From the NCBI RefSeq assembly GCF_000429465.1, contig NZ_AUBX01000002.1, forward strand, positions 1-64,000: 64,000 bases of DNA. Reading direction: 5' to 3'. Positions within the stretch are counted from its first letter, which is position 1. Each line of letters begins with the position of its first letter. The stretch comes from Algoriphagus vanfongensis DSM 17529 (lineage in GTDB: Bacteria > Bacteroidota > Bacteroidia > Cytophagales > Cyclobacteriaceae). The notes below the pieces were generated by a model. The model ran no database searches and had not been told where the DNA came from. It worked only from the letters and a program-made list of their open reading frames with translations. The translations under genes and the position numbers were made by a program. Shown here piece after piece: positions 36 to 14,520 of the stretch.

Positions 36-440
36 ATGAATAAATATTTAGGCTCGTTTTTTCTACTTTTTGGAGTTTTGTTAGTTATTCAAAACATCAA
101 GTTGTTAATAGATAGGAATCAAATTCGTGATATTAAGTTAAATGGAGTTAAGGTAGAATCTGTTGTTAAATCAAATGATTGTGAAAATACTGGATTTGTT
201 ACATTCGAAACATCTTCTAAGAAGCTAATTGAGATGGAATTTGATAGTGATTGTTGGATTTTTGAAGTTGGAAACACACAAGTTTTTTATTACAGTGAGA
301 AATACCCTGGAAGGTATATCTTTCCAAATGAGTCAATAAGTACTATTAATGACCTTTTCATCTTAGGCTTAGCAATTTTATCTATTGTGGTTGGAACATC
401 ATTTATTAAGAAAAGAAGGCCAGCACCCAACAATAGCTAA
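36..440 (+). CDS. Small two-helix membrane protein (DUF3592-like)
   Basis: A 134-residue protein with an N-terminal hydrophobic helix (about residues 5-24), a roughly 75-residue polar, probably extracytoplasmic middle with three cysteines, and a second helix (about 105-124) followed by a basic KKRRP tail. This TM-domain-TM layout and size resemble DUF3592-type proteins, but the assignment is only by layout. It is the single gene of the first cassette unit: it starts 35 bp after the opening GTTGGGTGC, and its last codons overlap the closing half-site GCACCCAAC. No function can be given. Confidence 0.6.
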   Translation: MNKYLGSFFLLFGVLLVIQNIKLLIDRNQIRDIKLNGVKVESVVKSNDCENTGFVTFETSSKKLIEMEFDSDCWIFEVGNTQVFYYSEKYPGRYIFPNESISTINDLFILGLAILSIVVGTSFIKKRRPAPNNS

Positions 441-554
441 AATCCATGGCGAGAAAGTTGTTCAGTTGGCACACAAGAACAAGTTATACGATTAGAAAAA
501 TTAGAACGAATAGAAACCCGATGCGCCACGGCTTTTAGCCCGAACGTTGTGAGG
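423..554. repeat. attC-like site 1
   Basis: R''-like GCACCCAAC (423-431) is followed by AAT and an L''-like AGCTAAAA arm. The 3' side has GGCTTTTAGCC, a short spacer and the R' core GTTGTGAGG (546-554). GCTAAAA pairs with TTTTAGC. The R'' motif is the exact reverse complement of the bases at 1-9, not of its own R', as expected when R' belongs to the next cassette. Confidence 0.7.
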
Positions 555-563
555 CATATCAGA

Positions 564-1436
564 ATGAAGAAATACTTAGCCATACTTTTAATTTCAATAC
601 TTCTTTTTTCTTGCAATAAGGAAAAAGGGACAAAAATCTTTCAGGTATTTGAACAAAAGGAAAATGTAGTTGATACTACTTTTTTAAGAAGTGTTAATCT
701 CGAAAATATTAATCTATGTTATACCACCTTAACAGATCTCAAAAACAGCGGCTATGCTTTTGTTCCAACAACTCGGAATCAATCAGATTCATTGATCATG
801 GAGTATAAAAGACAAGGTGAGAACTTCTATTTAGATAACGATGAACAAATTTTAGTAGGAACTTATAGTGATTCAGAATTAATAAGTTCTGTTTGGTTGT
901 TAGAAGGATTTAACGGCAGCTTTTTAGGAAAATCCATTAACCTGAGTACTTATACAGTCAAACAAATGCTTTCTGATTTTCCTAGTTTTAAATGGTCGGT
1001 TACTGGTGCATCAAATCACTGGTACTATACCAACAATGACACAACAGTATTTTATATTGAAATTGATCGGTCAATAGAGCAATTTCCATTGGACGAAGAG
1101 CACTATTTAAACAACTCAATAGCGGGAGTTAAAATGGAATTATCATGCTGGAACATTTATGGTCCCAATTTTGGCAAAAAGGATACTGTTTCTATTAAAC
1201 CAATTTACGCGCCTTTAAATGATCCACACACAAACTATTACTTAGAGCAAAGAAAACCAGGCATTAAAACAACAATCAAGGAAATAACAACAACTGGTAA
1301 AAAGACAATTACTCAACAAAAAAGAATTGGAAAATGGAAGAATTTTAACCCTGACCATTCTCTAGAGTCGATAGAGTATTATAACAACGGAGAACTAATT
1401 AGGACTGAAAAAACGACCCCACAACAAATGCTATGA
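564..1436 (+). CDS. Hypothetical lipoprotein
   Basis: A lipoprotein of about 290 residues. The reading frame is open from a GTG at 549, but that lies inside the attC-like core, so the ATG at 564 (MKKYLAILLISILLFSC) is the better start. It gives a signal peptide with lipobox LLFSC. The mature part has no family I recognise. The C-terminal about 60 residues (KKTITQQKRIGKWKNF...SIEYYNNGELIRTEK) resemble one MORN/YwqK-type repeat, which is common in Bacteroidota lipoproteins. Its stop lies inside the following attC-like site, after the R'' motif. It is the only gene of the second cassette unit. Confidence 0.65.
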   Translation: MKKYLAILLISILLFSCNKEKGTKIFQVFEQKENVVDTTFLRSVNLENINLCYTTLTDLKNSGYAFVPTTRNQSDSLIMEYKRQGENFYLDNDEQILVGTYSDSELISSVWLLEGFNGSFLGKSINLSTYTVKQMLSDFPSFKWSVTGASNHWYYTNNDTTVFYIEIDRSIEQFPLDEEHYLNNSIAGVKMELSCWNIYGPNFGKKDTVSIKPIYAPLNDPHTNYYLEQRKPGIKTTIKEITTTGKKTITQQKRIGKWKNFNPDHSLESIEYYNNGELIRTEKTTPQQML

Positions 1437-1584
1437 ATGAATGGGGTTTTTTCGGTCAGGAAAGTTTGGTGGGAATTGGAAAGTACGCCACAAGTTTTAA
1501 ATTTAAATCAAGGCGTGGCTATGTTGCATAGGAAAGGTTAGTGCTATCTAATCCCCACTCATCATAGCTAAACCGTTGTAGGGC
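1417..1584. repeat. attC-like site 2
   Basis: R''-like CCCCACAAC (1417-1425) pairs 8 of 9 with the unit start GTTGTGAGG at 546. The L'' side ATGCTATGAATGAATGGGG is matched on the 3' side by CCCCACTCATCATAGC near 1551-1569, ending in the R' core GTTGTAGGGC (1575-1584). The CCCCA...TGGGGTTTTTT part could also terminate transcription of the lipoprotein gene. Confidence 0.7.
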
Positions 1585-1599
1585 ATTTGAAGAAAGACA

Positions 1600-2064
1600 A
1601 TGAAGTACAAGAATTATAAATCGGCAATTCACAATTTCACTCACTCTTTCATTAGCATAGACTATATGAAAAGTGGACGTCTAGCCGTAAATGTTTTGAT
1701 TGACTTGTATAACCTCGGACTTGAAACTAAGACAACATTTGACTTTGTCAACAAAACCATACAACCGGGCAAAACTGAATCAAAGGAGAGTAAACAGTTG
1801 CTAAATGATTATTTGGATTGGCTGCCAGAACACTTTTCAAATCACAACTGTGACTTGACCAAATTGGAGAAATTAGAAACAACAATTTGGACAGACTTCG
1901 ACTCAGCATTTTCGCCAACAAGAATGAATGATACTATTGAATTTACAGTCAACTCTGTGACAATTTGGAAAGCTGAAGAACGAGAAGAACAAACAATTGA
2001 GATTTCACAAACAGAGTTGATAAAGAAGAACTTTCTAAAGGTGAGAATTCCTGAAATGAAATGA
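1600..2064 (+). CDS. Hypothetical protein
   Basis: A 154-residue soluble protein with no signal peptide or membrane segment, rich in charged and aromatic residues. I do not recognise the family. It begins 24 bp after the R' core of the attC-like site, and its stop overlaps the next gene's start (ATGA at 2061-2064). The two form one bicistronic cassette that is probably translationally coupled. A role with the CPCC protein, for example as a toxin/immunity-type pair, is possible but unsupported. Confidence 0.55.
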   Translation: MKYKNYKSAIHNFTHSFISIDYMKSGRLAVNVLIDLYNLGLETKTTFDFVNKTIQPGKTESKESKQLLNDYLDWLPEHFSNHNCDLTKLEKLETTIWTDFDSAFSPTRMNDTIEFTVNSVTIWKAEEREEQTIEISQTELIKKNFLKVRIPEMK

Positions 2065-2342
2065 CAGCAACGAAAACAAAATATTACTGTCCGTGCTGTG
2101 GATACAACTCATTGGATGAAGAGCCGACAGGAACTTATCAAATCTGTGAAATCTGTTTTTGGGAAGACGACCCAATCCAATTTGACGATTGGAACTATGA
2201 AGGTGGAGCTAATAAGGTTTCGTTAATTCAGGGACAGAAAAACTTTGAAAAATTTGGTGCTGTTGAAAAGAGATTGATTCCTCACACCAAACAACCAACG
2301 AAGAAGAAATATGAACGAAATCCAAATTGGAAAAATAAATAA
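2061..2342 (+). CDS. CPCC-type cysteine-rich protein
   Basis: A 93-residue protein starting YYCPCCGYNSL, with a second cysteine pair ICEICFWEDDP and a conserved-looking D(D)W..EGGAN segment. This order matches the Cys_rich_CPCC family, small putative zinc-binding proteins of unknown function. The four cysteines could form a zinc ribbon at residues 10-32. It overlaps the upstream gene by the ATGA quartet. Five bases after its stop come the closing bases GCCCTACAAC of the cassette. Confidence 0.75.
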   Translation: MTATKTKYYCPCCGYNSLDEEPTGTYQICEICFWEDDPIQFDDWNYEGGANKVSLIQGQKNFEKFGAVEKRLIPHTKQPTKKKYERNPNWKNK

Positions 2343-2346
2343 AAAC

Positions 2347-2370
2347 GCCCTACAACAAAAGGTATAGGGT
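2347..2370. repeat. Collapsed attC-like site 3 (R'' joined to R')
   Basis: GCCCTACAAC (2347-2356) is the exact reverse complement of the unit start at 1575. Four bases later GGTATAGGGT (2361-2370) resembles the expected R' GTTATAGGGC, which would be cognate to GCCCTATAAC at 3274. The hairpin body normally lying between R'' and R' is missing, so the site appears to have lost its L''/L' stem. Confidence 0.5.
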
Positions 2371-2386
2371 ATTTTAAAAGACGACC

Positions 2387-2827
2387 GTGAAACAGACAAT
2401 AAACATAATAATCGGACTGACTTTAATTCTTTTCACTGCTTGTGGACAAGGACAAATAAAAACACCTGAAAACGCAATGACAAAATTTGACGAGTTCAAA
2501 ATCAAAGAAAAATTTCTACAAGACGACAAACTATTTTATCCAGGAATAGGCGACCCCAACCTAAAACCTGTTTTGACAGAAAAAATCAATCTTGCAGCTG
2601 ACGACTTTAAAAAACTTGCTGACAAAGGAAATGCAACAGACAAAGAATATCAAAACGCAATAAAAGTGGGACTTGAGAGATTTGCTGACCTTTACTTACA
2701 ACTTGACACAGAAGACAGAGAAAGAGTTTGTAGTTACTTTGAAGAGCTTATTGACATTGTAGGACTTGAAAGTTCAGGCGGACACTTGAACAACTTTATG
2801 TATGGATTTCAAATTGAAAAGAAATGA
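2387..2827 (+). CDS. DUF4844-like lipoprotein
   Basis: A 146-residue protein with a GTG start, a signal peptide and lipobox LFTAC followed by GQGQ. The mature part contains KFDEFKIKEKFLQDD..FYPG and a C-terminal DREKVC-like helix (TEDRERVCSYFEELIDIVGLESSGG.LNNFMYGF). From memory this matches the DUF4844 family of unknown function. It overlaps the next gene by ATGA (2824-2827), so the pair forms one cassette. Confidence 0.6.
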   Translation: MKQTINIIIGLTLILFTACGQGQIKTPENAMTKFDEFKIKEKFLQDDKLFYPGIGDPNLKPVLTEKINLAADDFKKLADKGNATDKEYQNAIKVGLERFADLYLQLDTEDRERVCSYFEELIDIVGLESSGGHLNNFMYGFQIEKK

Positions 2828-3282
2828 AATCAAAGCTGACAGATAAAGCGTTTCTATTTCCATTTTTAGCAATTTCTTTAATTATTGTTTCAGCTAAAAT
2901 TATTTTGGACAACTACCCTATTGACTTTTTAAAACTCCGGTGGATAGACTATTTTATGATAATCTTATTTTCTGTGACTCTTGTTTGGCTTATTAAATTT
3001 GAGGCCTTAAGAAAAATGATTTTTATAGAAATTACAAACAAACAAGTTTTTATTCAAAATATCTATTTAGCAAAAAGAAATATAGCTCTGAATGACTTAA
3101 TTGGTTTTAAAACACAAATTGAAGTAACTAGACTTGGAAACTATGAAGAAACGGTAATTTCAGCCAAAAATGACACAAAAATAATTTTATCGGAATTCTT
3201 CTTAGACAACTACAAAGATATAAAAGGCAGCTTGACAAAAAACATAATGGACTATGGTGGAGCAAGAAAAAACGCCCTATAA
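2824..3282 (+). CDS. Small membrane protein with C-terminal PH-like part
   Basis: A 152-residue protein with two N-terminal hydrophobic segments (about residues 9-28 and 40-58) and a soluble C-terminal half rich in beta-type sequence (FIEITNKQVFIQNIYLAKRNIALNDLIGFK). This recalls bacterial PH-domain membrane proteins but is not diagnostic. It is coupled to the upstream lipoprotein by ATGA. Its TAA stop lies inside the R'' motif GCCCTATAAC. Confidence 0.5.
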   Translation: MKSKLTDKAFLFPFLAISLIIVSAKIILDNYPIDFLKLRWIDYFMIILFSVTLVWLIKFEALRKMIFIEITNKQVFIQNIYLAKRNIALNDLIGFKTQIEVTRLGNYEETVISAKNDTKIILSEFFLDNYKDIKGSLTKNIMDYGGARKNAL

Positions 3283-3409
3283 CAGCAGCTACCCAAAAGG
3301 CGGGGTTTTGTGTTCCAAAGACAGTTTTGTGCTTAAAGGAAGTTTAGTTTTTCAAATCGAGCTTTGTGGTAAAAGTCCCGCCCTTCGGGTAGCTGTAAAA
3401 CGTTATGCA
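3274..3409. repeat. attC-like site 4
   Basis: R''-like GCCCTATAAC (3274-3283) is followed by AGCAGCTACCC and GGCGGG. The 3' arm CCCGCCCTTCGGGTAGCT pairs with these and ends in the R' core GTTATGCA (3402-3409), which is cognate to TGCATAAC at 4796. A short open frame across the palindrome is not considered a gene. Confidence 0.75.
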
Positions 3410-3431
3410 TTATTAAAAAACAACCAACTCA

Positions 3432-4802
3432 ATGGCATTTAAGAAAACAGTCCAAGAAAAATTAGAGACCAAATTTAATTCTCTTTCTCAACATTCTGAT
3501 GTTATAAGAAATGGACATGTTTTTAGTGTAGGAGAAGATGTGCTTTTGGAAGTTTCAGACACTGAAATGACCTACGGCATAAAGAGATATTCACCAACCT
3601 CAACTGACCCTCTATGGGATGATAATTTTGCTGTTACCTTACATTTAAGTCATGAGAACTTAAGCTTAGTAAATTCAAACCCTATAAACCCACCAAAAGG
3701 CTCAAAAAAAGTTTTTGATGTTTTTAAAAATATAGAGGGAGTTAATATTCAACGTATTCATATTGGAACTGCTGAAAATTCACTGAATGGTAATGACTTG
3801 TATGTAGCAAAAGATCTTTACACTACAATAAATGAAATAGACAGAGAAGAAGGTAAGGACAAAAGAGTTAGGGTGTTTAACAGGATTATCCCATTCTTTA
3901 ACTCAGAGTTTGGTATCGACATTTCTGAAATGGAAGTCGATAGAAATTATTCTTTGCTACTAAAAGAGATACTTTCAAGTGGAGAATTTTCACAACAAGA
4001 CATAGAGTCTTTCACTGAAAAATTAGAAGAAGGAGAATCAGCTAAAGTTGTGATTGAAAAACAGATTAACAAGCAAACCGAGTGGCTTATATCAACCATT
4101 GAAAGCTTATTGGAAATTGATAGGCTAACTAAACCAAAAGCTAAAGATTTTGGAAGTCTACATTTTAAATATTCCAAAGTCAGCATAACAGGTCCAGAGC
4201 ACTTAATGGAAAAAATTTTGACAGACTATGGACAATATTCACTTTTTGGAGTACCAGCACTACTGAATACGGATAAATATGTGATTCATGAGGGTAGCTC
4301 AAGGTCTCAGTTTGATCTTATCCTAATAAATCACTTAGGAGATATTGAGTTGGTTGAATTGAAAAGACCAGATCAATATCTTTTTGATTATGGGAATGGT
4401 AGAGGAAAGTTTTATCCTTCAAAAGACTTAGCAATAGCAATATCCCAAACTGAAAGATACATAACGGCAGTAACCAAAGACCATGATGATGAATATTTAA
4501 TTGATGGCAAGAAAATCAGGGATTTTATAAATGATGAGATTGGTAATACTATGTTCGTAGAATCCATTAGACCAAAAGCTCTAATAATTATTGGTTCTTG
4601 GGAAAAACTCGCAAAAGATTATGACAGTTTAAGTACAACTACTAAAAGCAAGGTGACAAAAGAAGAATATGACCAGGATTGTTTACAAGCATATAAGGAG
4701 TTACAGCACTCATTAAAAAATATTAAGATTATGACGTACTCTGAGTTGCTTGAGAATGCAAGGACAAGATTAGAACTTACAAAAGAAAATAACAATGCAT
4801 AA
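3432..4802 (+). CDS. sduA: Shedu-type nuclease (DUF4263), phage defence
   Basis: A 456-residue protein. The C-terminal part (about residues 275-450) carries GVPALLNTDKYVIHEGSSRSQFDLILIN..GDIELVELKRP, a PD-(D/E)XK-type core with D near residue 295 and ExK near 306-308. It is followed by a conserved-looking RPKALIIIGSWEKL segment. This is the DUF4263 signature of Shedu (SduA), a single-gene anti-phage system. The N-terminal about 250 residues are variable, as is usual in the family, and may sense the invader. It is alone in its cassette and its TAA stop lies within the closing TGCATAAC. Activity is inferred from the family. Confidence 0.75.
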   Translation: MAFKKTVQEKLETKFNSLSQHSDVIRNGHVFSVGEDVLLEVSDTEMTYGIKRYSPTSTDPLWDDNFAVTLHLSHENLSLVNSNPINPPKGSKKVFDVFKNIEGVNIQRIHIGTAENSLNGNDLYVAKDLYTTINEIDREEGKDKRVRVFNRIIPFFNSEFGIDISEMEVDRNYSLLLKEILSSGEFSQQDIESFTEKLEEGESAKVVIEKQINKQTEWLISTIESLLEIDRLTKPKAKDFGSLHFKYSKVSITGPEHLMEKILTDYGQYSLFGVPALLNTDKYVIHEGSSRSQFDLILINHLGDIELVELKRPDQYLFDYGNGRGKFYPSKDLAIAISQTERYITAVTKDHDDEYLIDGKKIRDFINDEIGNTMFVESIRPKALIIIGSWEKLAKDYDSLSTTTKSKVTKEEYDQDCLQAYKELQHSLKNIKIMTYSELLENARTRLELTKENNNA

Positions 4803-4932
4803 CAGCACCTAAGAAAACATGGGGTGGTCAGTGGTAAACGCCAGGCTCGTTCTTCGTGGCTATATTAGTCACGGGCGGACAGGAAAGAGCTTCGAAAGCC
4901 CCACGTTTCTTAGCTGCAAACCGTTGTAAGTA
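4796..4932. repeat. attC-like site 5
   Basis: R''-like TGCATAAC (4796-4803) is the exact reverse complement of GTTATGCA at 3402. AGCACCTAAGAAAACATGGGG pairs imperfectly with CCCCACGTTTCTTAGCTGC, and the site ends in the R' core GTTGTAAGTA (4923-4932). Confidence 0.75.
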
Positions 4933-4955
4933 ATGCCGAAAAACCCAGAAACCGA

Positions 4956-5750
4956 ATGAAAAAAACAATATTCGAAATTACCAAAATGGACTGTCCTTCA
5001 GAGGAAAATCTAATCCGAATGAAATTGGACGGAATTTCAAGTATTGCGAATTTGGACTTTGATATTCCGAACCGAAAACTGACTGTTTTTCACAGCGGAG
5101 AATCCGACCAAATCGAAAAGTCCGTTATTGAACTAAATTTAGGCGGAAAGAAAATCTCGACCGAACAGACCGACCAAACAGAATTTAATGAAAATGCAAA
5201 CCAAAAAAAGCTACTTTGGTCTGTACTTGCAATCAATTTTGCCTTTTTTATTATCGAAATGACAACAGGAATAATCTCAAAATCAATAGGTCTTGTTGCC
5301 GATAGTTTGGATATGCTTGCCGACAGTTTCGTATACGGAATTAGCTTGTTTGCGGTTGGCGGAACGTTGATTAAGAAAAAGCGGATTGCAAAACTTGCTG
5401 GATATTTTCAAATAACACTTGCGATTATTGGATTTGTGGAAGTTTTAAGAAGATTTTTTGGAAACGAGAAACTTCCCGATTTTTCGACAATGATTATCGT
5501 TTCGATTTTTGCACTTATTGCAAACGGTATTTGTCTTTACATTTTGCAAAAGTCAAAAAGCAAAGAAGAGGCTCATATGAAAGCGAGTATGATTTTCACA
5601 TCAAATGACGTGATTATCAATTTAGGAGTAATAATTGCTGGAATTTTGGTAAATTGGTTGAGTTCGAGCAAACCTGATTTGATTATCGGAACAATCGTTT
5701 TTGTTTTGGTAATTCAAGGAGCGTTTCGAATTTTGAAATTAAGTAAGTGA
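4956..5750 (+). CDS. Cation transporter, CDF family with HMA-like N-terminus
   Basis: A 264-residue protein. Residues 1-70 form a heavy-metal-associated-like domain (IFEITKMDCPSEE) in which the usual CxxC is reduced to CPSE. The rest has about five hydrophobic segments with the CDF-type intramembrane motif SIGLVADSLDMLADSFVYG. Such proteins export divalent metal ions by antiport. It lacks the usual long cytoplasmic C-terminal domain and is short for a CDF protein. Sole gene of its cassette. The metal cannot be deduced. Confidence 0.75.
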   Translation: MKKTIFEITKMDCPSEENLIRMKLDGISSIANLDFDIPNRKLTVFHSGESDQIEKSVIELNLGGKKISTEQTDQTEFNENANQKKLLWSVLAINFAFFIIEMTTGIISKSIGLVADSLDMLADSFVYGISLFAVGGTLIKKKRIAKLAGYFQITLAIIGFVEVLRRFFGNEKLPDFSTMIIVSIFALIANGICLYILQKSKSKEEAHMKASMIFTSNDVIINLGVIIAGILVNWLSSSKPDLIIGTIVFVLVIQGAFRILKLSK

Positions 5751-5762
5751 ATAAAAAAGCAC

Positions 5763-5961
5763 TACTTACAACAATGGCTATACGTAATGCGGGTTTTCTG
5801 CTAAACGAAAGGTTAGTGCATTTTAAGAAGTCCGCCAATACTTTAATTTGGTATTTAAAGTGAATAAAATAAAAACAAAATATAAACTATTGGCTCAGTG
5901 CAAATTTGAAACTTTCCGCTTTCAAATCCCGCACTACGCATAGCCGGGTCGTTGGCTGTAA
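5763..5961. repeat. attC-like site 6
   Basis: R''-like TACTTACAAC (5763-5772) is the exact reverse complement of GTTGTAAGTA at 4923. AATGGCTATACGTAATGCGGG pairs with CCCGCACTACGCATAGCC, and the site ends in the R' core GTTGGCTGTAA (5951-5961). At about 199 bp this is the longest intact site here. The A/T-rich loop holds no gene. Confidence 0.75.
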
Positions 5962-5991
5962 TGTAAAACGACATTCCCAAAAACAAAGAAA

Positions 5992-6459
5992 ATGACCCAA
6001 TCTGAACTTATAACTTTAAATTTTACAGAAATAAGGAGAAGAAGTATAAAACTTTGGAATGGGCTACCTGAGAAATATTATAATTGGAAACCTGACGAAA
6101 AAGCTATGAGTGCCTCAGAAATGATAAGACACATTTTGGAGGCTGATTATGGATGGAATATTATTATTAATCAAGGTGATATGAAAAATTATAGAACACC
6201 TTGGGAAAACCGACCATTCATTAACGTTACAGACGAACTTGAATTTGCCGAACCTCATAGAAAAGCATTTATAGAAAGTGTTAGGAAATTTTCGGATACG
6301 CAATTAAACGAAACCAAAATCATTCATCCAGGGAACGGAGAAAAGAAAATACTTGGAAAATATTTATTGCGCATTGGATATCACGAATCAGTTCACGCAG
6401 GACAATTTTTGTCGTATTTAAGAGCAATGAAAATTGATAGACCAAAAATATGGGATTGA
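5992..6459 (+). CDS. DinB-like metal-dependent protein
   Basis: A 155-residue protein with the four-helix DinB/YfiT pattern. Candidate metal-binding histidines lie in MIRHILEADYGW (near residue 47) and in GYHESVHAGQFLSYLR (near 131 and 135). The family includes thiol-dependent transferases and damage-inducible proteins; the substrate of this one is unknown. It is the single gene of a cassette opened by GTTGGCTGTAA and closed by CTACAGCCAAC at 6467, a 10 of 11 complement. Confidence 0.75.
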   Translation: MTQSELITLNFTEIRRRSIKLWNGLPEKYYNWKPDEKAMSASEMIRHILEADYGWNIIINQGDMKNYRTPWENRPFINVTDELEFAEPHRKAFIESVRKFSDTQLNETKIIHPGNGEKKILGKYLLRIGYHESVHAGQFLSYLRAMKIDRPKIWD

Positions 6460-6466
6460 AAAAACA

Positions 6467-6715
6467 CTACAGCCAACAACTAGGTTTTCGTTGCGTGCGT
6501 AGCACGAATCAATGAAACCGGTGTTGCACGGAACCGACGAGGTCTCTATGGAGATTGAATCAGTATTTTTTGAACGAAACTAGGTGACTGATTAGATTAA
6601 AAAAATAAATCGTAAGAGTAGATCCTGTATCAATTCAAAAAACCATTGTTGTTTTAGGTCTTTCCAATGCCTTTTGGAAGGGTTTTTTATTGCATGGGCA
6701 TAGCTTCGCCAGCCC
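6467..6715. repeat. R'' half-site followed by dispersed ~250-bp element, copy 1
   Basis: CTACAGCCAAC (6467-6477) closes the DinB cassette. It is followed directly by AACTAGGTTTTCGTTGCG and a hairpin CGTGC-GTA-GCACG. The next about 240 bp align with 14271-14520 (shared stretches include ACTAGGTTTTCGT, GCGTGCGTAGCACGAA, GAACGAAAC). In both places the element abuts an R'' motif. It holds no gene. Confidence 0.55.
6660..6688 (+). terminator. Rho-independent terminator-like hairpin
   Basis: CTTTCCAA and TTGGAAGG form an 8-bp stem (one G-T pair) around a six-base loop, followed by GTTTTTT. It would stop transcription leaving the DinB cassette before the IS remnants. Confidence 0.55.
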
Positions 6716-6730
6716 GATCAAAATCAGGAA

Positions 6731-7000
6731 TTAAAATTGGGTTGTGACAGCAGAAAAGACGGCCTTTGGAGGGCCACGCTTGGGTAGGCGCTGAATGCTT
6801 ACCATGCTTTCCTTCTGGCAGCAGTGGCAGTATCGTGGGTTATAGGTTTCAAGAATGCGGGGCTCCTTTTCTGGAATCGGAATTTCAAGTTCCCGATGAA
6901 TAAGCGGAATGATGAGTTGCTTAGCCGAGCTGCCGAGTATTCCAAAGTGGCGGATCCGAACCAGCCCTTTGGGTAAAATATGCATGGAAAACTGAAGGCT
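6731..7000 (-). pseudogene. IS91-family transposase, C-terminal fragment
   Basis: Read on the minus strand, the frame gives FSMHILPKGLVRIRHFGILG and later ILETYNPRYCHCCQKESM. This is the characteristic LPKGFVRIRHYG segment and terminal cysteine cluster of IS91-type Y2 transposases. The frame is open right up to the CCCCC terminus of the IS3-family element at 7001, where it is cut, so only about the last 85-90 codons survive. The rest of the gene is not found on the other side of the IS3 element. Confidence 0.75.
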
Positions 7001-7072
7001 CCCCCTTTTTTGGACAACTCTAAAATAGACAAAATCGGTTTTTGATGATGGCTATTGTTACTATTAAAGGTG

Positions 7073-7936
7073 TTAATTGTGGGTAACTTCGGAGAAGTTA
7101 TCCACTGTTAACGCCCGTTGCTGTGCAAACTCTACTGGAGAGCAGTTATTCAGGCTTCCATGTGGTCGGTGATGGTTGTAGTCCTCCAACCATTCCCTGG
7201 TAATCTCTCTGACCTCTTCGAGTGAAATAAAGGAATAATAATTCAATACTTCTGTTCTGTAGGTTTTGTTGAACCGTTCCACAAAAGCATTTTGCATGGG
7301 TTTCCCTGGTTGGATAAATAAGATTTTTACTTGGTTTGTTTCTGCCCAAGTCCTGAGTGGTTCGGCGATGAATTCCGGTCCATTGTCCACTCTGATCTGA
7401 CTGGGCAGGCCTCTCCATTCTTTCAATTCTTCCAATACCCTGACCACACGGAGTGAGGGCAGGCTGGCACCGATCTCGATATGGAGGGCTTCCCGGTTGA
7501 AGTCATCCAAAATGTTGAGCGTTCTGAAGCGCTGACCTGACATCAGGCTATCAGACATAAAATCCATCGACCAGCTGGAATTGACCAATTCCGGCTGAAT
7601 CAGGGGTTCCTTGACTCTTGCGGGGACTCTTCGCTTTCCTTTTCTGCGCATGCTCAGTTGGAGCAGTTTATAGACCCTATATACGCGTTTGTGATTCCAG
7701 GTGATTCCTTCTTTACGCATCCGCTTGTACAACAGCCAGAAGCCATATTGCCCAAAGCGATCTGCATATTCTCGTACTGTATCCACTACTTCTAAATCAT
7801 TTTTGACCGGCTTGTAATAAAATGCCGATCGGGAGTAGTCAACCAAGTCACAGGCCCTGATGATGGCGACGGGATAGCTGCCTAGTATGTACTCTACCCG
7901 CTGTCTTCTATCAGCAGGGCTCAGAACATTTTTCCC
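7073..7936 (-). CDS. IS3-family transposase OrfB (DDE integrase)
   Basis: The catalytic part of the transposase. Visible DDE-type landmarks are WSMDFMSD (first D), IRVDNGPEF (second D) and AFVERFNKTYRTEVL (E), after an HTH_21-like region (REYADRFGQYGFWLLYKRMRKEG). It has no obvious start of its own. It is expected to be made as an OrfAB fusion by a -1 shift at 7930-7936, so the coordinate given is the entry codon in this frame. It looks intact. Confidence 0.8.
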   Translation of the reverse strand, partial: GKNVLSPADRRQRVEYILGSYPVAIIRACDLVDYSRSAFYYKPVKNDLEVVDTVREYADRFGQYGFWLLYKRMRKEGITWNHKRVYRVYKLLQLSMRRKGKRRVPARVKEPLIQPELVNSSWSMDFMSDSLMSGQRFRTLNILDDFNREALHIEIGASLPSLRVVRVLEELKEWRGLPSQIRVDNGPEFIAEPLRTWAETNQVKILFIQPGKPMQNAFVERFNKTYRTEVLNYYSFISLEEVREITREWLEDYNHHRPHGSLNNCSPVEFAQQRALTVDNFSEVTHN

Positions 7937-8187
7937 AGGACATCCTTGAGAATCTTGTTGTCCAGGGCCAGCTCCGCGTACATCTGCTTGAGTTTCCGGT
8001 TTTCTTCCTCCAGCTCTTTGAGCCGTTTGAGTTCCTGGACTTCCATGCCTCCGTATTTCTTTTTCCAAGTGTAAAAAGTACCACGGTGGATTCCCAACTC
8101 CCGGCAAAGCTCATTAACATCCCGACCGGATTCATGTTCTTTCACAGCCTTGACGATCTGGCTTTCAGTAAATCTTGACTTCTTCAT
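7921..8187 (-). CDS. IS3-family transposase OrfA
   Basis: An 88-residue protein with an N-terminal helix-turn-helix (MKKSRFTESQIVKAVKEHESG...LCRELGIHRGTFYTWKKKYGGM) and a leucine-zipper-like coiled coil (about residues 55-85), typical of IS3 OrfA, which binds the terminal repeats. It overlaps orfB in the other frame. Translation that does not shift ends in MF followed by TGA at 7923-7921. Confidence 0.85.
   Translation of the reverse strand: MKKSRFTESQIVKAVKEHESGRDVNELCRELGIHRGTFYTWKKKYGGMEVQELKRLKELEEENRKLKQMYAELALDNKILKDVLGKMF
7930..7936 (-). other. Programmed -1 frameshift site G GGA AAA
   Basis: On the minus strand, in the orfA frame, the codons are CTG GGA AAA ATG TTC TGA. The heptamer G GGA AAA fits the X XXY YYZ rule for tandem -1 slippage and lies four codons before the orfA stop. 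Slippage puts ribosomes into the orfB frame (GGG AAA AAT GTT). A stimulatory structure downstream was not identified. Confidence 0.7.
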
Positions 8188-8240
8188 ACAGTTTAAAGTT
8201 AAAGACTTTGTCGTCTTTTAAACTGTCCTACTTTTGGGGA

Positions 8241-8368
8241 AGCTTACAATAGCAAATGCGGGCTGACTGCTTATAAATGAAGATTTTACAACTAAATAAA
8301 ATTCGGTCTGGCAGACAAAATTTCGGGTTTAAAACCCCGCACTTGCCATAACCAGGGCGGTTATGCAC
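8241..8368. repeat. attC-like site 8, left edge cut at the IS3 junction
   Basis: Right after the IS end, TTACAATAGCAAATGCGGG resembles the R''/L'' start of the other sites but lacks a clean AAC. GCAAATGCGGG pairs with CCCGCACTTGC near 8335-8345, and the site ends in the R' core GTTATGCAC (8360-8368). This core is the exact complement of GTGCATAAC at 10407. The short frame across it on the minus strand is not a gene. Confidence 0.6.
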
Positions 8369-8506
8369 AAGCGTGAAAAACGCTACGACCAAAAAAGAAC
8401 CAAGCCCACCCACCACCTGATTTTATCCATTTTGAACACAACATCATAGGATTTGAACACTTTTTTATGTGTCAACCTGCTCACTTTTGTACCATAATTT
8501 AAACGA

Positions 8507-9346
8507 ATGATTATGAGCAATAAGAAAGTGTGGTTTATCACAGGAACATCAAAAGGATTTGGATTGGCATTGACAAAACTGGCATTGTCTCAAGGTCATC
8601 AAGTTATCGCTACATCAAGAAATATCGAAGAGTTAAAAAATTCGATTACAGAAAAGCAAGACAATTTCTTGCCTTTGAAAGTGGATATTACTTCCGACAA
8701 AGAAGTTAAAAATGCTGTTCAACAAGGCATTGAAAAATTTGGAAGAATAGATGTAGTGGTCAATAATGCAGGCTATTCATTGGTAGGTAGCATAGAGGAA
8801 ATAACAGACAAGGAATTTCGTCAAACCGTGAACGTTAACTTGTTCGGAACAGTCAATATTTTGCGAAATGTAATGCCTCATTTACGAAAACAACAGTTGG
8901 GACATATCATCAATATTGCTTCCAATGCAGGTTATGTTGGTTTTGCCAATGCCACAAGTTACAACGCTTCAAAATTTGCGGTGGTGGGTATTTCTGAAGC
9001 ATTGGCACAGGAAGTAAATGACTTTGGTATAAAAGTTACCGTAGTTGCACCAGGACAGTTCAGAACCAGTTTTATGGAAAAAGGTTCTATGCAGTTTGCT
9101 AAAAACAGAATTTCAGTTTACGGTTTGGACAAAGCAGAGGAACTTTGGACAAATTACAGCGGACAACAGATAGGTGACCCTGAAAAATTTGTAAAAATAC
9201 TTGCCGAAATTGTCGAGTTGGAGAATCCACCGTTACGATTGCTATTGGGTATGGACACTTATGACTTGATAAAAGAGCATCGGGAAAAAGAAATGCAAGA
9301 GTTTGAAACTTGGAAACATTTGACGCTATCGACCAATTTTGATTGA
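8507..9346 (+). CDS. SDR-family oxidoreductase
   Basis: A 279-residue classical short-chain dehydrogenase/reductase. It has the nucleotide motif TGTSKGFG (residues 12-19), NNAG (residues 87-90), and the catalytic Ser (INIASNAG) with Tyr and Lys (SYNASKFAVVG, near residues 156-160). It is likely a cytoplasmic NAD(P)-dependent enzyme; the substrate is unknown. It sits 18 bp upstream of an AraC-type regulator, a pairing seen repeatedly in Bacteroidota, so the regulator may control it. An ATG six bases in (8513) is an alternative start. Both genes lie in one cassette bounded by GTTATGCAC and GTGCATAAC. Confidence 0.85.
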   Translation: MIMSNKKVWFITGTSKGFGLALTKLALSQGHQVIATSRNIEELKNSITEKQDNFLPLKVDITSDKEVKNAVQQGIEKFGRIDVVVNNAGYSLVGSIEEITDKEFRQTVNVNLFGTVNILRNVMPHLRKQQLGHIINIASNAGYVGFANATSYNASKFAVVGISEALAQEVNDFGIKVTVVAPGQFRTSFMEKGSMQFAKNRISVYGLDKAEELWTNYSGQQIGDPEKFVKILAEIVELENPPLRLLLGMDTYDLIKEHREKEMQEFETWKHLTLSTNFD

Positions 9347-9364
9347 TTTCGTATTTTTATATCA

Positions 9365-10285
9365 ATGAAACGGACAGGAAAAAAACCGCATATTTTTAAT
9401 TCGATATCCGAATTGCACAGAGCATTGGCTTTGCCAAAACCCAAACACCCATTGGTAAGCGTCATCAATTTTGAAGAAACAAAATGCTTTGATGATGAGA
9501 GTCTGCGTAGCGTGTCCTATAATTTCTACTGTATTGCCATCAAAAAGAATTTTGAGGGAAAAATGAAATACGGACAACAGTACTACGATTTTGATGAAGG
9601 TGTGATGACATTCTTTTCACCTATGCAGGTAGTAACCACCGACATTGTTGAAGGGTTAAAATTGTCAGGATATTGGTTGGTGGTTCATCCCGATTTCATC
9701 AGAAATTATACATTGGGAAAAACAATAAAAAACTACGGCTATTTTTCTTATTCAGTCAATGAAGCCTTACACCTTTCGGAAGATGAAGATAAAGCAATAA
9801 CCACCATAATGCAGAACATAGAAAATGAATACCGTTCTGTAATAGACCATTTTAGTCAAGATGTTATCGTTTCCCACATAGAATTATTGCTCAATTATTG
9901 CAACCGTTTTTACAACAGACAATTCATTACCCGAAGAACGGCAAGCAATGATTTGTTGGTAAAATTGGAATGTCTGTTAACCGATTATTTCAATAGCGAA
10001 CAAATACAGGAATCGGGACTTCCTACGGTTCAGTATGTTTCAAGTCAATTGAACATTTCGGCAGATTATTTAAGCGATATGCTTCGCAATCTTACAGGAC
10101 AAAATACGCAACAGCATATCCACAACCATTTAATCGAAAAAGCCAAAGAGAAATTATCTACCACCGAGCTTTCTGTTAGTGAAATTGCTTACGAATTGGG
10201 GTTTGAGTATCCGCAATCGTTCAGCAAACTGTTCAAGACCAAAACTAATTTAACGCCTTTAAAATTTAGGCAGTCGATTAATTAG
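9365..10285 (+). CDS. AraC-family transcriptional regulator
   Basis: A 306-residue protein with an N-terminal cupin-like effector domain (about 1-190) and a C-terminal AraC DNA-binding domain. The second helix-turn-helix reads LSVSEIAYELGFEYPQSFSKLFKTKTNLTPLKFRQ, and the first includes LNISADYLSDMLRNLTGQN. It follows the SDR gene by 18 bp and probably regulates it. It is unusual as cassette cargo because the cassette holds two genes over about 2 kb. Confidence 0.85.
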   Translation: MKRTGKKPHIFNSISELHRALALPKPKHPLVSVINFEETKCFDDESLRSVSYNFYCIAIKKNFEGKMKYGQQYYDFDEGVMTFFSPMQVVTTDIVEGLKLSGYWLVVHPDFIRNYTLGKTIKNYGYFSYSVNEALHLSEDEDKAITTIMQNIENEYRSVIDHFSQDVIVSHIELLLNYCNRFYNRQFITRRTASNDLLVKLECLLTDYFNSEQIQESGLPTVQYVSSQLNISADYLSDMLRNLTGQNTQQHIHNHLIEKAKEKLSTTELSVSEIAYELGFEYPQSFSKLFKTKTNLTPLKFRQSIN

Positions 10286-10406
10286 GGCGTGTTAACACAA
10301 GTCATTATTAATAATTCAACAATCAGAGCAGAAAATATAAAGCCTTATATGAATTGAAATATCGCAAATAAATATCCTAACGACCGAAGTATAATTAGGA
10401 ATGCCA

Positions 10407-10418
10407 GTGCATAACAAT
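10407..10418. repeat. attC-like site 9, R'' half (left of IS110-family element)
   Basis: GTGCATAAC (10407-10415) plus AAT. It is a 9 of 9 complement of GTTATGCAC at 8360. The rest of the site resumes at 11931 beyond the IS element. Confidence 0.65.
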
Positions 10419-10523
10419 GTATTCCATGAATAATCAAAAGTTCATTTTCTAACATTTTTTCTTTGTTTTGGCTGTTTTTGACTTGATTGCCTGTTTTTTT
10501 GGACTGATTGGAAGAAGTCAAGA

Positions 10524-10780
10524 ATGGACAAAGCGCTGCCCTGCGAGTGGAATGTCCACTCGCCTTGTTCTTTACTTCTGAAGTATCAGTCCATACCTTG
10601 CGATCATCAAATACAAGCCATGCTTCTCCCGATAGTTTCGGGACAGGCTATCAGAGATCCATGCTATTTATGGTCTCAGTTTCCGGTTAGTTTAGTAAGT
10701 GCTCCAGCCCCATACTATAATAGAGTTCCTGATTATTGGACTCTCATCCCGATAAATATCGGGATTGAGAGGTCTGGAGC
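10524..10780 (-). ncRNA. Candidate IS1111-type guide RNA (bridge/seekRNA) region
   Basis: This non-coding stretch downstream of the transposase contains several strong hairpins. They are GCGAGTGGA/TCCACTCGC (10543-10563), TCCCGA/TCGGGA (10627-10643) and TCCCGATA/TATCGGGA extended by CTCTCA/TTGAGAG (10741-10771). The last is enclosed by GCTCCAG (10701) and CTGGAGC (10774). IS1111-type elements encode their target-guide RNA downstream of the transposase. RNA ends and guide loops are not assigned. Open frames here are not considered genes. Confidence 0.4.
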
Positions 10781-10817
10781 TTATTGATGGGCTTGATCCA
10801 ATGGTCTTTACCACGGA

Positions 10818-11873
10818 CTAAGTTGAATATCCTACCTGGTAAGGTTCACCCGTTTTTAAGACATGATATATTCTTGACAAGAGTTTTCTTGCTATGATTA
10901 CTATGGCGCGTTTGCCGGTATGTCTTTGCAATAGTTCCTCGTATCGACTCAGCATCACCGGATCTCGTTGGACGGTGGTCCAGGCACATTCGATCAGTGA
11001 GCTTCTCAGTCCCTGATGATGGCGATAAGTCATGTATCCTTTTCGGTCTGATTCACCGCTGGAATGGACCATCGGTTTGAGCCCGATATAACTATTGAAG
11101 TGTTTGAAACTCCTGAAGCGATGGATATCCTCAATCTCAGTGAGTAACTGGACTGTTGTTAAGGGGCCTATCCCAGGAATCTGTCTCAGCAGCTTGGAGT
11201 TTGCCTTGTATTTTGCCTTTCGCTGCAGCGCACGGACAGAAATGGAGACCTTCAAAAAGTGACGGTAGGTAAATTCAAATTGGTCGAGCAATAAATCCAT
11301 TACCAGTCTGCTGCTATCCGAAGGGAGCTCTACGATGGCCAGCCAATCCAGAAAGTCCTTTGTCCAATAAGGATTATCGTATTTAGGAGGTATTTCTATC
11401 CCGTTTTGAAGTAGTTTGTCCTTGATCCTGTTTTTCACCCGGACCAAGTCTGCCCAGAGTCTCTTTCGGTATCTGAAGAGTTGTCGATCACCTTCTGTTT
11501 CCTGAGTTGGAACGTGGATTCCTCGCAGCAGTCCAGCCCGGAGTGTTTTGGCCATTTTCCGACTGTCCACAGGATCAGTCTTCTCACTGGATTCTTTATT
11601 GGTCGTGGGAAGATCAGCCGGATTGATTTCCACGCATTCGTAACCAAAAGATTTTAGATCCCGATAGATCCAAAACCCAAACTTACAGGCTTCATAACAG
11701 CATATGATATGATATTTTGGAAAAAACTTATCCAAGTAAGACTTCAAGGCTTTGGGATCAGGTGCCTGACTGAAGGTTTTATGATGGCAATTGGCTGTAA
11801 ATATGCAAACGCTCCACTGGCGCTTGTGCACATCAATACCAATGAATAACTTAGGAGAAACTTCGGTGTCCAT
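10818..11873 (-). CDS. IS110-family transposase
   Basis: A 351-residue DEDD transposase. The N-terminal RuvC-like part has FIGIDVHK (D14), CYEACKFG (E61) and KTDPVDSRKMA (D100, D103). The C-terminal Transposase_20 part has LLRQIPGIGPLTTVQLLTEI and YIGLKPMVHSSGESDRKG with the expected catalytic serine near residue 271. It appears intact. Enzymes of this family cut and paste DNA through a serine intermediate guided by an element-encoded RNA. Confidence 0.9.
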   Translation of the reverse strand: MDTEVSPKLFIGIDVHKRQWSVCIFTANCHHKTFSQAPDPKALKSYLDKFFPKYHIICCYEACKFGFWIYRDLKSFGYECVEINPADLPTTNKESSEKTDPVDSRKMAKTLRAGLLRGIHVPTQETEGDRQLFRYRKRLWADLVRVKNRIKDKLLQNGIEIPPKYDNPYWTKDFLDWLAIVELPSDSSRLVMDLLLDQFEFTYRHFLKVSISVRALQRKAKYKANSKLLRQIPGIGPLTTVQLLTEIEDIHRFRSFKHFNSYIGLKPMVHSSGESDRKGYMTYRHHQGLRSSLIECAWTTVQRDPVMLSRYEELLQRHTGKRAIVIIARKLLSRIYHVLKTGEPYQVGYST

Positions 11874-11930
11874 GATATATTCTTTTTGGTTCTATCCTTA
11901 AAACGAACCAGATTATATCATGGGAACTAT

Positions 11931-12045
11931 AGTGCATAAGGGTTTCAGCGGTTTTCGAGCAGTATCACCCGCTTCAATTTTGGGTGGTAACTTGATAGGT
12001 TTGAAGCCCGCAATTCCTTACGACACCATACACTAAACGTTGTGA
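11931..12045. repeat. attC-like site 9, L''-L'-R' part (right of IS110-family element)
   Basis: TAGTGCATAAGG (from 11930) pairs with CCTTACGACACCATACACTA (about 12016-12035), and the site ends in the R' core GTTGTGA (12039-12045). Joined to GTGCATAAC-AAT at 10407-10418 it rebuilds a site of the same plan as the others (AACAATAGC...). Confidence 0.55.
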
Positions 12046-12151
12046 CTCATGCCAAAAACGAGAGTAACATTTACCTCTCAGTATTAAACAAGGGTAAATA
12101 ATTGTTATTTTTACACCCGATCAACAATCAAATGTAAAATTTACTCTAGTT

Positions 12152-13234
12152 ATGAACTTCTTCGATAAAGCCAAACCATATAATGACTTACCTCTACTTC
12201 CACCTAAAGCAGATTTAGAAACGAAAGAAATTCTAACTAAGACTATTACGGCTAGTAGAGCCCTAGCTCAACTAAATGGAGCAATCAGAAACCTTCCTAA
12301 CCCAAGCCTATTTCTTGACACAATTCATCTACAGGAAGCAAAGGCAAGCTCTGAAATAGAGAACATTATAACAACCAATGACGACTTATATCAAGCTGTT
12401 GTTGCTGATAAAAAATTTGACAATTCTGCTACAAAAGAAGTCATTAGCTACAAAGAAGCTATATGGCTTGGTTTTAAGCATCTTGAGAAAAAACCATTCA
12501 TAACAACTAACCTATGTATTGAACTTGTACAGTGCATAAAACAGAATACTGCTGGAATTAGAACAACTCCTGGTACTACCCTATCCAACACAAAAGGTGA
12601 AGTAATCTACACTCCACCTTCAGGTGAACAAGTCATTCGAGAAAAAATGGCTAATCTTGAAACATTCATCAATGAAAATGAATCGTTAGATCCTTTAATA
12701 AAAATGGCTATATCTCATTACCAATTTGAGGCAATACACCCTTTTTCAGATGGTAATGGTAGAACTGGCCGTATTCTTCTATTACTTCAATTAAAACTTG
12801 AAAAACTTCTTGACATACCGGCTCTATTCTTAAGCGAATACATTATTCACCATAAAGACAACTATTACAAAGGATTAAGGGCCATTACGGAAAAAAACGA
12901 TTGGTCTAAATTCATACTCTATATGCTTGATATGGTTGAAACCACCTCTATCAAAGGATTAGACAGATTAGAATCAATCATTCAGCTCATGGAAACTACT
13001 GGCCAAGAAATAAAAGAAAGGCTTCCAAAGGTATATTCTAAAGACTTAGTCGAAGTCATCTTTAAGCTTCCATACACTAAAAGACAAAACCTAATTGATA
13101 TTGAACTAGGTACACCAAAAACAGTAGGAAACTATCTTATAGCATTAGAAGAAGAAGGATTTCTTAAATCGGTAAGAGTCGGAAAAGAAAAGTTATATCT
13201 GAACCAAAAATTAATGCGCATACTTGAAAAATAG
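12152..13234 (+). CDS. Fic-domain protein with N-terminal inhibitory motif
   Basis: A 360-residue protein. The canonical Fic motif HPFSDGNGRTGR lies near residues 197-208, supporting nucleotidyl (usually AMP) transfer to a hydroxyl group on a target protein. The Fic_N region contains SSEIEN near residues 65-70, which fits the (S/T)xxxE(G/N) auto-inhibitory motif of class II Fic proteins. No separate antitoxin gene is therefore required. The C-terminal about 90 residues look like a winged helix (LPYTKRQNLIDIELGTPKTVGNYLIALEEEGFL). Sole gene of a cassette opened at 12039 and closed by CACAAC at 13249. Confidence 0.85.
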   Translation: MNFFDKAKPYNDLPLLPPKADLETKEILTKTITASRALAQLNGAIRNLPNPSLFLDTIHLQEAKASSEIENIITTNDDLYQAVVADKKFDNSATKEVISYKEAIWLGFKHLEKKPFITTNLCIELVQCIKQNTAGIRTTPGTTLSNTKGEVIYTPPSGEQVIREKMANLETFINENESLDPLIKMAISHYQFEAIHPFSDGNGRTGRILLLLQLKLEKLLDIPALFLSEYIIHHKDNYYKGLRAITEKNDWSKFILYMLDMVETTSIKGLDRLESIIQLMETTGQEIKERLPKVYSKDLVEVIFKLPYTKRQNLIDIELGTPKTVGNYLIALEEEGFLKSVRVGKEKLYLNQKLMRILEK

Positions 13235-13246
13235 AAAAGCACCGAA

Positions 13247-13379
13247 GGCACAACAATGGCTAAGCTTCAGGCGGCTTGACGGCAATCCGCTAGGTGTTTG
13301 CTTATTTGCTATCTTCGGTCTCGGCCGAATAGAACACGCCAGTAAACTCCGCCCGAAGGCTTAGCCGCAGCGTTGTGTC
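13247..13379. repeat. attC-like site 10
   Basis: R''-like GGCACAAC (13247-13254), AAT, then GGCTAAGCTTCAGGCGG pairing with CCGCCCGAAGGCTTAGCC, a GCAGC spacer and the R' core GTTGTGTC (13372-13379). This is the cleanest palindrome of the array. The about 140 bp to the next start hold only a possible 29-codon hydrophobic frame from a GTG near 13421 to 13514, not annotated. Confidence 0.75.
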
Positions 13380-14262: not shown

Positions 14263-14520
14263 TGCACAACAACTAGGTTTTCGTCGCGTGCGTAGCACGA
14301 ACGATAAACCGATGCTGCCCAGCCTGTCGCGATAGCGAAGCGTATCGGGAGAATCGATGAGGTTCTTATGGGGATTGAGTCAGGATTTTATGAACGAAAC
14401 GAGGTGTCCTAATGGTTTAAAAAGTAATACCTGTCAGAAGATTCGGTATTTTTTCAAAAAGAGTTTTAATGTTCTAGCCTTTCTAATACCTTTTGGAGGG
14501 ACTATGGGAAATCATGATCG
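14263..14520. repeat. R'' half-site followed by dispersed ~250-bp element, copy 2
   Basis: TGCACAAC (14263-14270) closes the hydrolase cassette, and AACTAGGTTTTCGTCGCGTG follows at once. The next about 240 bp are a diverged copy of 6478-6715, again with the CGTGC-GTA-GCACG hairpin. No gene is seen; a 62-codon frame here is judged spurious. Confidence 0.5.

What the first reader, a model, noticed from the sequence alone, without database searches (positions are those of the whole stretch)
10407..12045. IS1111-type element inserted precisely inside an attC-like site
GTGCATAAC-AAT (10407-10418) and AGTGCATAAGGG (11931-) are the R'' and L'' of one site separated only by the IS. Subterminal inverted repeats are present. 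In Proteobacteria, the IS1111-attC group targets integron attC sites; this would be an analogous attC-targeting element in Bacteroidota.
Basis: partly seen in the sequence, partly recalled or inferred. Interest (0 to 1): 0.75.

Follow-up and report, generated by a model that had tools for sequence, protein, structure and literature searches.

The report
RNA-guided insertion element targeting integron sites
A small mobile element in a Bacteroidota genus repeatedly lands at one exact spot in the recombination sites between gene cassettes, probably led there by its own RNA, and it seems to have evolved this habit separately from the known elements that do the same in Proteobacteria.

Summary
The finding is real. 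A 1,506-bp IS1111-type element (window 10422-11927, intact 351-aa transposase on the minus strand) splits an attC site between R'' and L''. The site lies in an array with at least six other attC sites (four by scanner, two by eye). Among 17 distinct intact right ends of copies in the genus (Algoriphagus, inferred), 15 abut an attC R'' box at the same offset and orientation; one is shifted by 1 bp, one is nested in another copy. Homologous uninterrupted attC sites run through the junction without a gap there at 23 distinct places; no same-cassette empty allele was found. Relatives in other genera (7 of 7 right ends in three genomes) have the same register. One of them splits a peptidase gene at a matching linear sequence, so linear sequence, not the folded hairpin, is probably read. 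ISPa21, of the Proteobacterial IS1111-attC group, occupies nearly the same attC position in the same orientation, but its transposase is 23% identical and lies in another clade: attC targeting arose at least twice. A seekRNA-like region has candidate guides, convincing in one relative, weak or absent by shuffling in the others, and interrupted in the window's own copy. No genus genome (0 of 72) has an integron integrase over the cut-off.

The parts
10422..11927 (-). IS1111-type insertion sequence, 1,506 bp (10423-11928 is equally possible)
   Evidence: ends conserved among copies; uninterrupted homologous attC sites define the junction
10818..11873 (-). DEDD transposase, 351 aa; D14, E61, D100, D103 and SG at 272-273 (motif assignment by eye)
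   Evidence: Pfam PF01548 + PF02371, NF033542 215.9 bits over cut-off 140, residues
11911..11926 (-). left-end subterminal inverted repeat TTCCCATGATATAATC
10422..10435 (-). right-end subterminal inverted repeat GATTATTCATGGAA
10701..10781 (-). candidate seekRNA / bridge RNA hairpin region in the long noncoding 3' end (inferred RNA)
   Evidence: position downstream of tnp as in IS1111; alignment; fold of the 110 nt 10672-10781(-), z -4.52, 0 of 200 shuffles as good
10715..10723 (-). candidate guide B, CTATTATAG, resembling the L'' side of the target
   Evidence: weak on its own
10748..10763 (.). palindrome CCCGATATTTATCGGG in the loop that carries candidate guide T in sister copies
   Evidence: alignment of window and A. 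formosus copies with L008/L013/L006
10409..10415 (+). attC R'' box GCATAAC of the interrupted site
11928..11942 (+). attC L'' (begins with GTA at 10419-10421) of the interrupted site
12016..12045 (+). attC L' and R' (GTTGTGA at 12039-12045) of the interrupted site
425..552 (+). attC site of the array
1419..1581 (+). attC site of the array
3277..3408 (+). attC site of the array
4797..4929 (+). attC site of the array, recognised by eye
   Evidence: sequence printed
5766..5957 (+). attC site of the array, recognised by eye (longer than the scanner's limit)
   Evidence: sequence printed
13247..13378 (+). attC site of the array, next after the interrupted one

Best explanation
The element is an IS1111-type transposon with a DEDD transposase and a long noncoding 3' end. 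It inserts at a fixed point of integron cassette recombination sites: just 3' of the R'' box (cassette strand CAACAATGGC|TATAAG), transposase antisense to the cassettes, no target duplication. Shown: repeated, precise, oriented insertion at R''/L'' in several genera, and homologous uninterrupted sites without a gap at the junction. Inferred from the family's biology: excision as a circle and insertion led by a seekRNA made from the 3' end, one guide pairing with the R'' side and one with the L'' side. Inferred: the linear double-stranded sequence is read, not the folded attC, because one relative inserted into a peptidase gene that carries the same linear motif. Insertion separates R'' from the rest of attC, so the site is presumably dead for an integrase. 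The attC habit arose separately from the Proteobacterial IS1111-attC group.
For: Targeting: 15 of 17 right ends (+1 shifted, 1 nested) at R''. Of 17 left ends, L'/R' follow at the expected place in 10 by eye (window, L002, L003, L005, L008, L013, L028, L030, L036, L055; the R' of L005, L036 and L055 is a variant); 5 have 5% or fewer shuffles as good. Five joined sites: own arm beats the other four sites' arms in 5 of 5. No gap at the junction at 23 distinct places. Relatives: G103 2 of 2, G676 4 of 4, G671 1 of 1 right ends with GTT in the same register. Off-target: G676 L150 interrupts Peptidase_M3, the two flanks matching profile 43-140 and 144-240. IS1111 traits. Convergence: ISPa21 after CTAACAATTC in the smr attC, antisense to the cassette, 23% identity; at least 2 changes forced by starred branches. 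Guides: for G103, 0 of 400 shuffles reach its score.
Against: The guide step is weak: 36 of 400 shuffles reach the score of L008, 195 of 400 that of the window copy, 423 of 1000 that of G676 on its site consensus. The G676 guide fits G103's sites slightly better than its own; for the RNA region of G103, 17 of 200 shuffles fold as well. The window and A. formosus copies have a palindrome in the guide-T loop, yet A. formosus holds copies with it at different sites. Left ends L004, L056, L031 and L061 are not in recognisable attC, and L026, L057 and L058 were not confirmed. Removing TA would improve the window's own pairing (11.5 against 10.5; in the other four sites it lowers it).
Confidence: 0.85

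Rival explanations
1. Ordinary IS110-family insertion into a repeated intergenic palindrome of Bacteroidota that only looks like attC; no link to integrons.
For: No genome of the genus (0 of 72) has an integrase over the TIGR02249 cut-off. The window's joined site folds no better than shuffles.
Against: The sites have R''/L''/L'/R' order and lie one to a few ORFs apart. A contig of a family member with an integrase fragment over the cut-off carries a site with a similar 5' end, TTACAACATTGTATAA (G151); the other integrase-bearing contig gave none (G096).
Confidence: 0.1
2. The transposase recognises the folded single-stranded attC hairpin, as integron integrase does.
For: The target is a palindromic site; insertion is on one arm and in one orientation.
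Against: A relative split a Peptidase_M3 gene at a matching linear sequence. Known IS1111 elements use RNA complementary to both strands of a short target (PMC11187229).
Confidence: 0.07
3. The clustering at attC reflects spread by cassette movement or one ancestral insertion, not repeated targeting.
For: Several A. formosus copies lie within about 20 kb of one contig.
Against: Upstream gene ends and attC loops differ between sites, and divergent relatives in other genera show the same register.
Confidence: 0.05

Closest known systems
IS1111-attC group of Proteobacteria (ISPa21 read here; ISKpn4, ISPst6 and ISPa25 known from PMC11187229 passages)
   Same: IS1111-type element inserted just 3' of the attC R'' box, transposase antisense to the cassettes (ISPa21 in pME-1a).
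   Different: Transposase 23% identical over 261 aa, in another clade with IS4321 and ISEc11; Bacteroidota host; cassette arrays without a recognisable integrase in the genus.
IS1111/IS110 seekRNA or bridge-RNA guided transposons (ISEc11, IS621)
   Same: DEDD + Transposase_20 protein, subterminal inverted repeats, long noncoding 3' end, no target duplication.
   Different: No RNA was measured; guide matches are convincing only for the G103 relative.
CALIN (attC cluster lacking integrase)
   Same: Array of attC sites with one to a few ORFs between, no IntI over cut-off in 72 genomes.
   Different: Found by a crude scanner and by eye, not by IntegronFinder.

Membership tests
IS1111 family | DEDD transposase with C-terminal Transposase_20 domain | tested here: met
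IS1111 family | subterminal inverted repeats | tested here: met
   TTCCCATGATATAATC / TTCCATGAATAATC, alike but for small indels
IS1111 family | long noncoding region downstream of the transposase gene | tested here: met
   396 bp downstream (10422-10817) against 54 bp upstream (11874-11927)
IS1111 family | terminal extensions of 7 bp left and 3 bp right, no target duplication | tested here: inconclusive
   no duplication; 7 and 3 fit if the boundary is moved by 1 bp, but the repeats contain indels
IS1111 family | transposase groups with IS1111 rather than IS110 members | tested here: inconclusive
   the Bacteroidota clade is separate from the IS4321/ISEc11/ISPa21 clade; root unsure, one IS110-type row only
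IS1111 family | seekRNA bound to the transposase and essential for movement | not testable with these tools
   candidate region only
IS1111-attC group | insertion at one position and orientation of attC | tested here: met
IS1111-attC group | kinship of the transposase with the Proteobacterial members | tested here: not met
   tested with ISPa21 only: 23% identity (53.1 bits), against 24% and 65.5 bits for IS4321, whose target is another; attC label needs at least 2 changes
integron | integron integrase in the genome | tested here: not met
   0 of 72 genus genomes over the TIGR02249 cut-off; weaker matches in 72 of 72, as in all 14 control genomes, are read as other tyrosine recombinases; 2 of 196 family genomes are over it
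integron | attC sites between cassettes | tested here: met

The most novel reading that the evidence does not exclude
Two unrelated lineages of RNA-guided transposases have each programmed their guide RNA with the R'' core of the integron recombination site and parasitise attC at nearly the same base and in the same orientation. In Bacteroidota this is an old clade across several genera whose guides (AACACTGTG, AACATGCGG, AACACTCGC after the pyrimidine) have diverged to follow different attC families, in arrays where no integrase is present, so that the transposon may be the main agent acting on these sites.
Probability: 0.45. Interest if true: 0.68.

Novelty: new variant of a known kind. Interest (0 to 1): 0.52.

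Why it matters
It shows separately evolved, probably RNA-guided targeting of integron recombination sites in two phyla, gives a natural series of related elements and attC variants with which guide-target rules of IS1111 elements can be tested, and shows that cassette arrays in Bacteroidota, where few complete integrons are reported (PMC9024848 passage), are common enough to support specialised parasites.

Tried and rejected
Rfam scan of the window at gathering thresholds: 0 matches. Guide search on the window's own noncoding region: no signal above shuffles, which the palindrome explains only in part. An alternative guide, GCATGGCT, was considered and dropped because it does not follow the target in G103 (by eye). 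The G186/G126 relatives (41% and 40% identity) were first taken for attC-targeting because their right flanks read CCAACATTCT / ACAACATTCT and their candidate guide B changes with the left flank; no L' or R' was found, so they are not counted (they were labelled attC in the tree, not in that). G744 (46% identity to G103) has CTAACAAAAT at both right ends, but that box lies inside the stretch the two copies share, so it may be IS sequence; not counted. G754's right end was not found. The phylum search (395 genomes) gave one distant relative, G458, not at an attC that I could recognise. Eight other distant elements (G057, G068, G099, G143, G198, G241, a second G103 element, G732) sit in other sequence, judged by eye. 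No same-cassette empty allele turned up in 72 genomes (only the best candidates per genome were scored); the L008 site gave no match across its junction. Right ends with more than 4 mismatches were not examined; of 25 left-end groups, 8 with 3-4 mismatches were left out, of which L039, L041 and L068 look like decayed IS ends. Two long-branch rows (L134, L135) were dropped between the trees.

Papers. Searches listed no paper on an attC-targeting IS in Bacteroidota, as far as titles, abstract starts and terms show; only that openly licensed library was searched. Seen: PMC11187229 (passages; parts 2 and 3 of 9 of the text); passages only of PMC12444791, PMC11616780, PMC6739498, PMC7232449, PMC7558541, PMC9024848, PMC9668308, PMC8618304, PMC11208160. 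Tetu & Holmes 2008 is not held and Post & Hall 2009 was not looked up; what I say of them is recalled or comes from passages that cite them.

Full report
What is there. The window carries one IS1111-type element at 10422-11927 (1,506 bp; a shift by one base is equally possible). The transposase, 10818-11873 on the minus strand, 351 aa, is intact and matches DEDD_Tnp_IS110 and Transposase_20 and NCBIfam's RNA-guided IS110 transposase. The noncoding end downstream of the gene is 396 bp, the upstream one 54 bp; this is the IS1111 arrangement described in PMC11187229 (passages; parts 2 and 3 of the text). It is the only copy found in its genome.

Where it sits. The flanks are two parts of one attC site in an array of cassettes. 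A crude scanner found four further sites on the plus strand (425-552, 1419-1581, 3277-3408, 13247-13378) in the window with the IS left out, and two weaker hits in the other 47 kb; ten shuffles of the first 15 kb gave 0 or 1 hit each. The scanner did not flag the interrupted site itself. Two more sites (4797-4929, 5766-5957) were recognised by eye in sequence printed.

Other copies. IS DNA, fragments included, matches in 23 of 72 genus genomes, the own genome among them; only the best candidates per genome were scored. The transposase at E <= 1e-60 is in 6 of 72, of which two (G057, G068) hold only 38-39% identical relatives. Not all matches were fetched: its 30 loci and 20 regions. One search listed 20 groups of right ends with up to 4 mismatches. 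I counted those with at most 1, which are 16 groups or 17 places. In 15 of 17 the R'' box lies in the same register and orientation; L037 is shifted by 1 bp; one in L006 abuts internal IS sequence. Of the four degenerate ends left out, L042 has the box in register; L059, L065 and L066 do not. Ends with more than 4 mismatches (for example in L032, L033, L040) were not examined. Of 17 left ends with at most 2 mismatches, 10 are followed by L' and R' at the expected place by eye, three of them with a variant R'. Five reach 5% or less by shuffling (L002, L003, L005, L028, L055), L013 (58 of 1000) and L030 (72 of 1000) are just above it, and the other ten, the window among them, are not significant. 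L004, L056, L031 and L061 look unlike attC.

Exact junction. In five joined sites the arm across the junction pairs with its own 3' arm better than the arms of the other four do (5 of 5; 0 to 6 of 500 shuffles as good). Dropping TA lowers the score in four and raises it in the window's site (10.5 to 11.5). Homologous uninterrupted attC sites in relatives run through the junction with no gap there: 27 alignment rows, 23 distinct places, for four of the five sites. For the window's own site there are two, at 73-75% identity, with gaps some bases away. A same-cassette empty allele was not found. Thus nothing is added or lost: GGC|TATA on the cassette strand. In sites that read GGC, both junctions show the dinucleotide CT, the core reported for IS621 (passages of PMC11208160).

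Relatives. G103 (63% identity to the window's transposase) has two copies at R'' boxes. The left flank pairs as attC (TATGATGAATGGCC with GGCCACTCATCATA, followed by GTGTTAC, by eye); one of the two loci is cut short there, so this is one left flank. G676 has four copies, all at R''-like boxes in the same register. One of them (L150) interrupts a Peptidase_M3 gene, the two sides matching profile positions 43-140 and 144-240; that copy suggests that the linear sequence TAACAGAAGC|TATGCACTAT is enough. G671, of another genus, holds an almost identical element (tree path 0.044) at CAACAATGGC|TATAAAG. So 7 of 7 right ends in these three genomes are in register. G744 has an R''-like box at two right ends, but within the stretch shared by both copies, so it is not counted. 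These rows form one starred clade of eight (97/92) with G744 and with G754, whose right end was not seen. Nine more distant elements sit in sequence that I could not recognise as attC, and two (G186, G126) are unresolved.

Comparison with Proteobacteria. ISPa21 in pME-1a (named so in passages of PMC6739498 and PMC7232449) splits the smr attC just after CTAACAATTC, with the transposase antisense to the cassettes. Its exact junction was not determined here; it lies within a few bases of the point used by the window's element. Its transposase is 23% identical over 261 aa, with fewer bits (53.1) than IS4321 (65.5), which has another target. It falls with IS4321 and ISEc11 (100/99, 100/100). Starred branches force at least two changes of the attC label. 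ISPa21 is a long branch, and it is the only Proteobacterial attC-targeting row. The best near-full-length plasmid match to the window's transposase is 31% (36-38% over joined pieces).

Guide RNA. The 110 nt 10672-10781(-) fold better than all 200 shuffles, as do the 97 nt of L008; for G103, 17 of 200 shuffles do as well. Aligned copies show a loop reading CAACACTGTG in palindrome-free Algoriphagus copies, CAACATGCGG in G103 and TAACACTCGC in G676, followed by a second segment resembling the L'' side. The order, R''-side guide first, is that reported for IS1111. The shuffle test supports G103 (0 of 400), is weak for L008 (36 of 400), and is absent for the window (195 of 400), G186 (227 of 400), G126 (170 of 400) and ISPa21 (238 of 400). 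For G676 it is absent on the consensus (423 of 1000); for its four sites singly it gives 270, 7, 18 and 268 of 300, the 7 at the expected place and the 18 at another. Own guides fit own sites best for the R'' side in Algoriphagus and G103 but not in G676, and for the L'' side clearly only in G103. The window and A. formosus copies have a palindrome in that loop. I therefore hold RNA guidance as very likely from family biology, and these particular guide positions as about even.

Integrase. No genus genome (0 of 72) has a match over the TIGR02249 cut-off, while 2 of 196 family genomes do, so the test can find one. Of those two, attC-like sites were seen on the contig of one (G151, a 192-position match) and not in the 20 kb read around the other (G096). 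[quoted passage not shown]

Verdict. A real, precise, recurrent attC-targeting IS1111-type lineage in Bacteroidota, whose attC habit arose independently of ISPa21's. New variant of a known kind.

Noticed in passing
window 425-13378 and genus genomes: Cassette array of attC sites with no integron integrase over the curated cut-off in any of 72 genus genomes; what moves these cassettes is unknown.
   Followed up: partly
window 10748-10763: A palindrome CCCGATATTTATCGGG lies in the guide loop of the window's IS and (in variants) of A. formosus copies, but not of L006, L008 and L013; copies with it still occupy attC sites.
   Followed up: partly
L150 (G676), junction at 1425/2907 of the locus: A sister element interrupts a Peptidase_M3 gene at a sequence matching the attC target.
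   Followed up: yes
window 3432-4802: A gene between attC sites with the Shedu SduA C-terminal domain, an anti-phage defence family by recall.
   Followed up: no
window 7073-8187: An IS3-family transposase (NF033516) with a small upstream ORF, inside the same array.
   Followed up: no
window 6474-6603 and 14267-14423: Two copies of a repeat of about 130-160 bp (97% and 78% alike in parts), not a typical attC; a similar sequence lies next to a degenerate IS end in L061.
   Followed up: no
L142 (G671, another genus of the family): An almost identical IS in another genus suggests recent transfer between genera.
   Followed up: partly
G012 contig C14, about 0.8-20.7 kb: Several full and partial IS copies crowd one contig stretch in A. 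formosus.
   Followed up: partly
L073 and L074 (G186, G126): In these relatives the candidate second guide differs in the same way as the left flank (TTTTTAG with TTTATAG, TTATGAG with TTTATGAG), a hint of natural reprogramming; the target is not confirmed as attC.
   Followed up: partly
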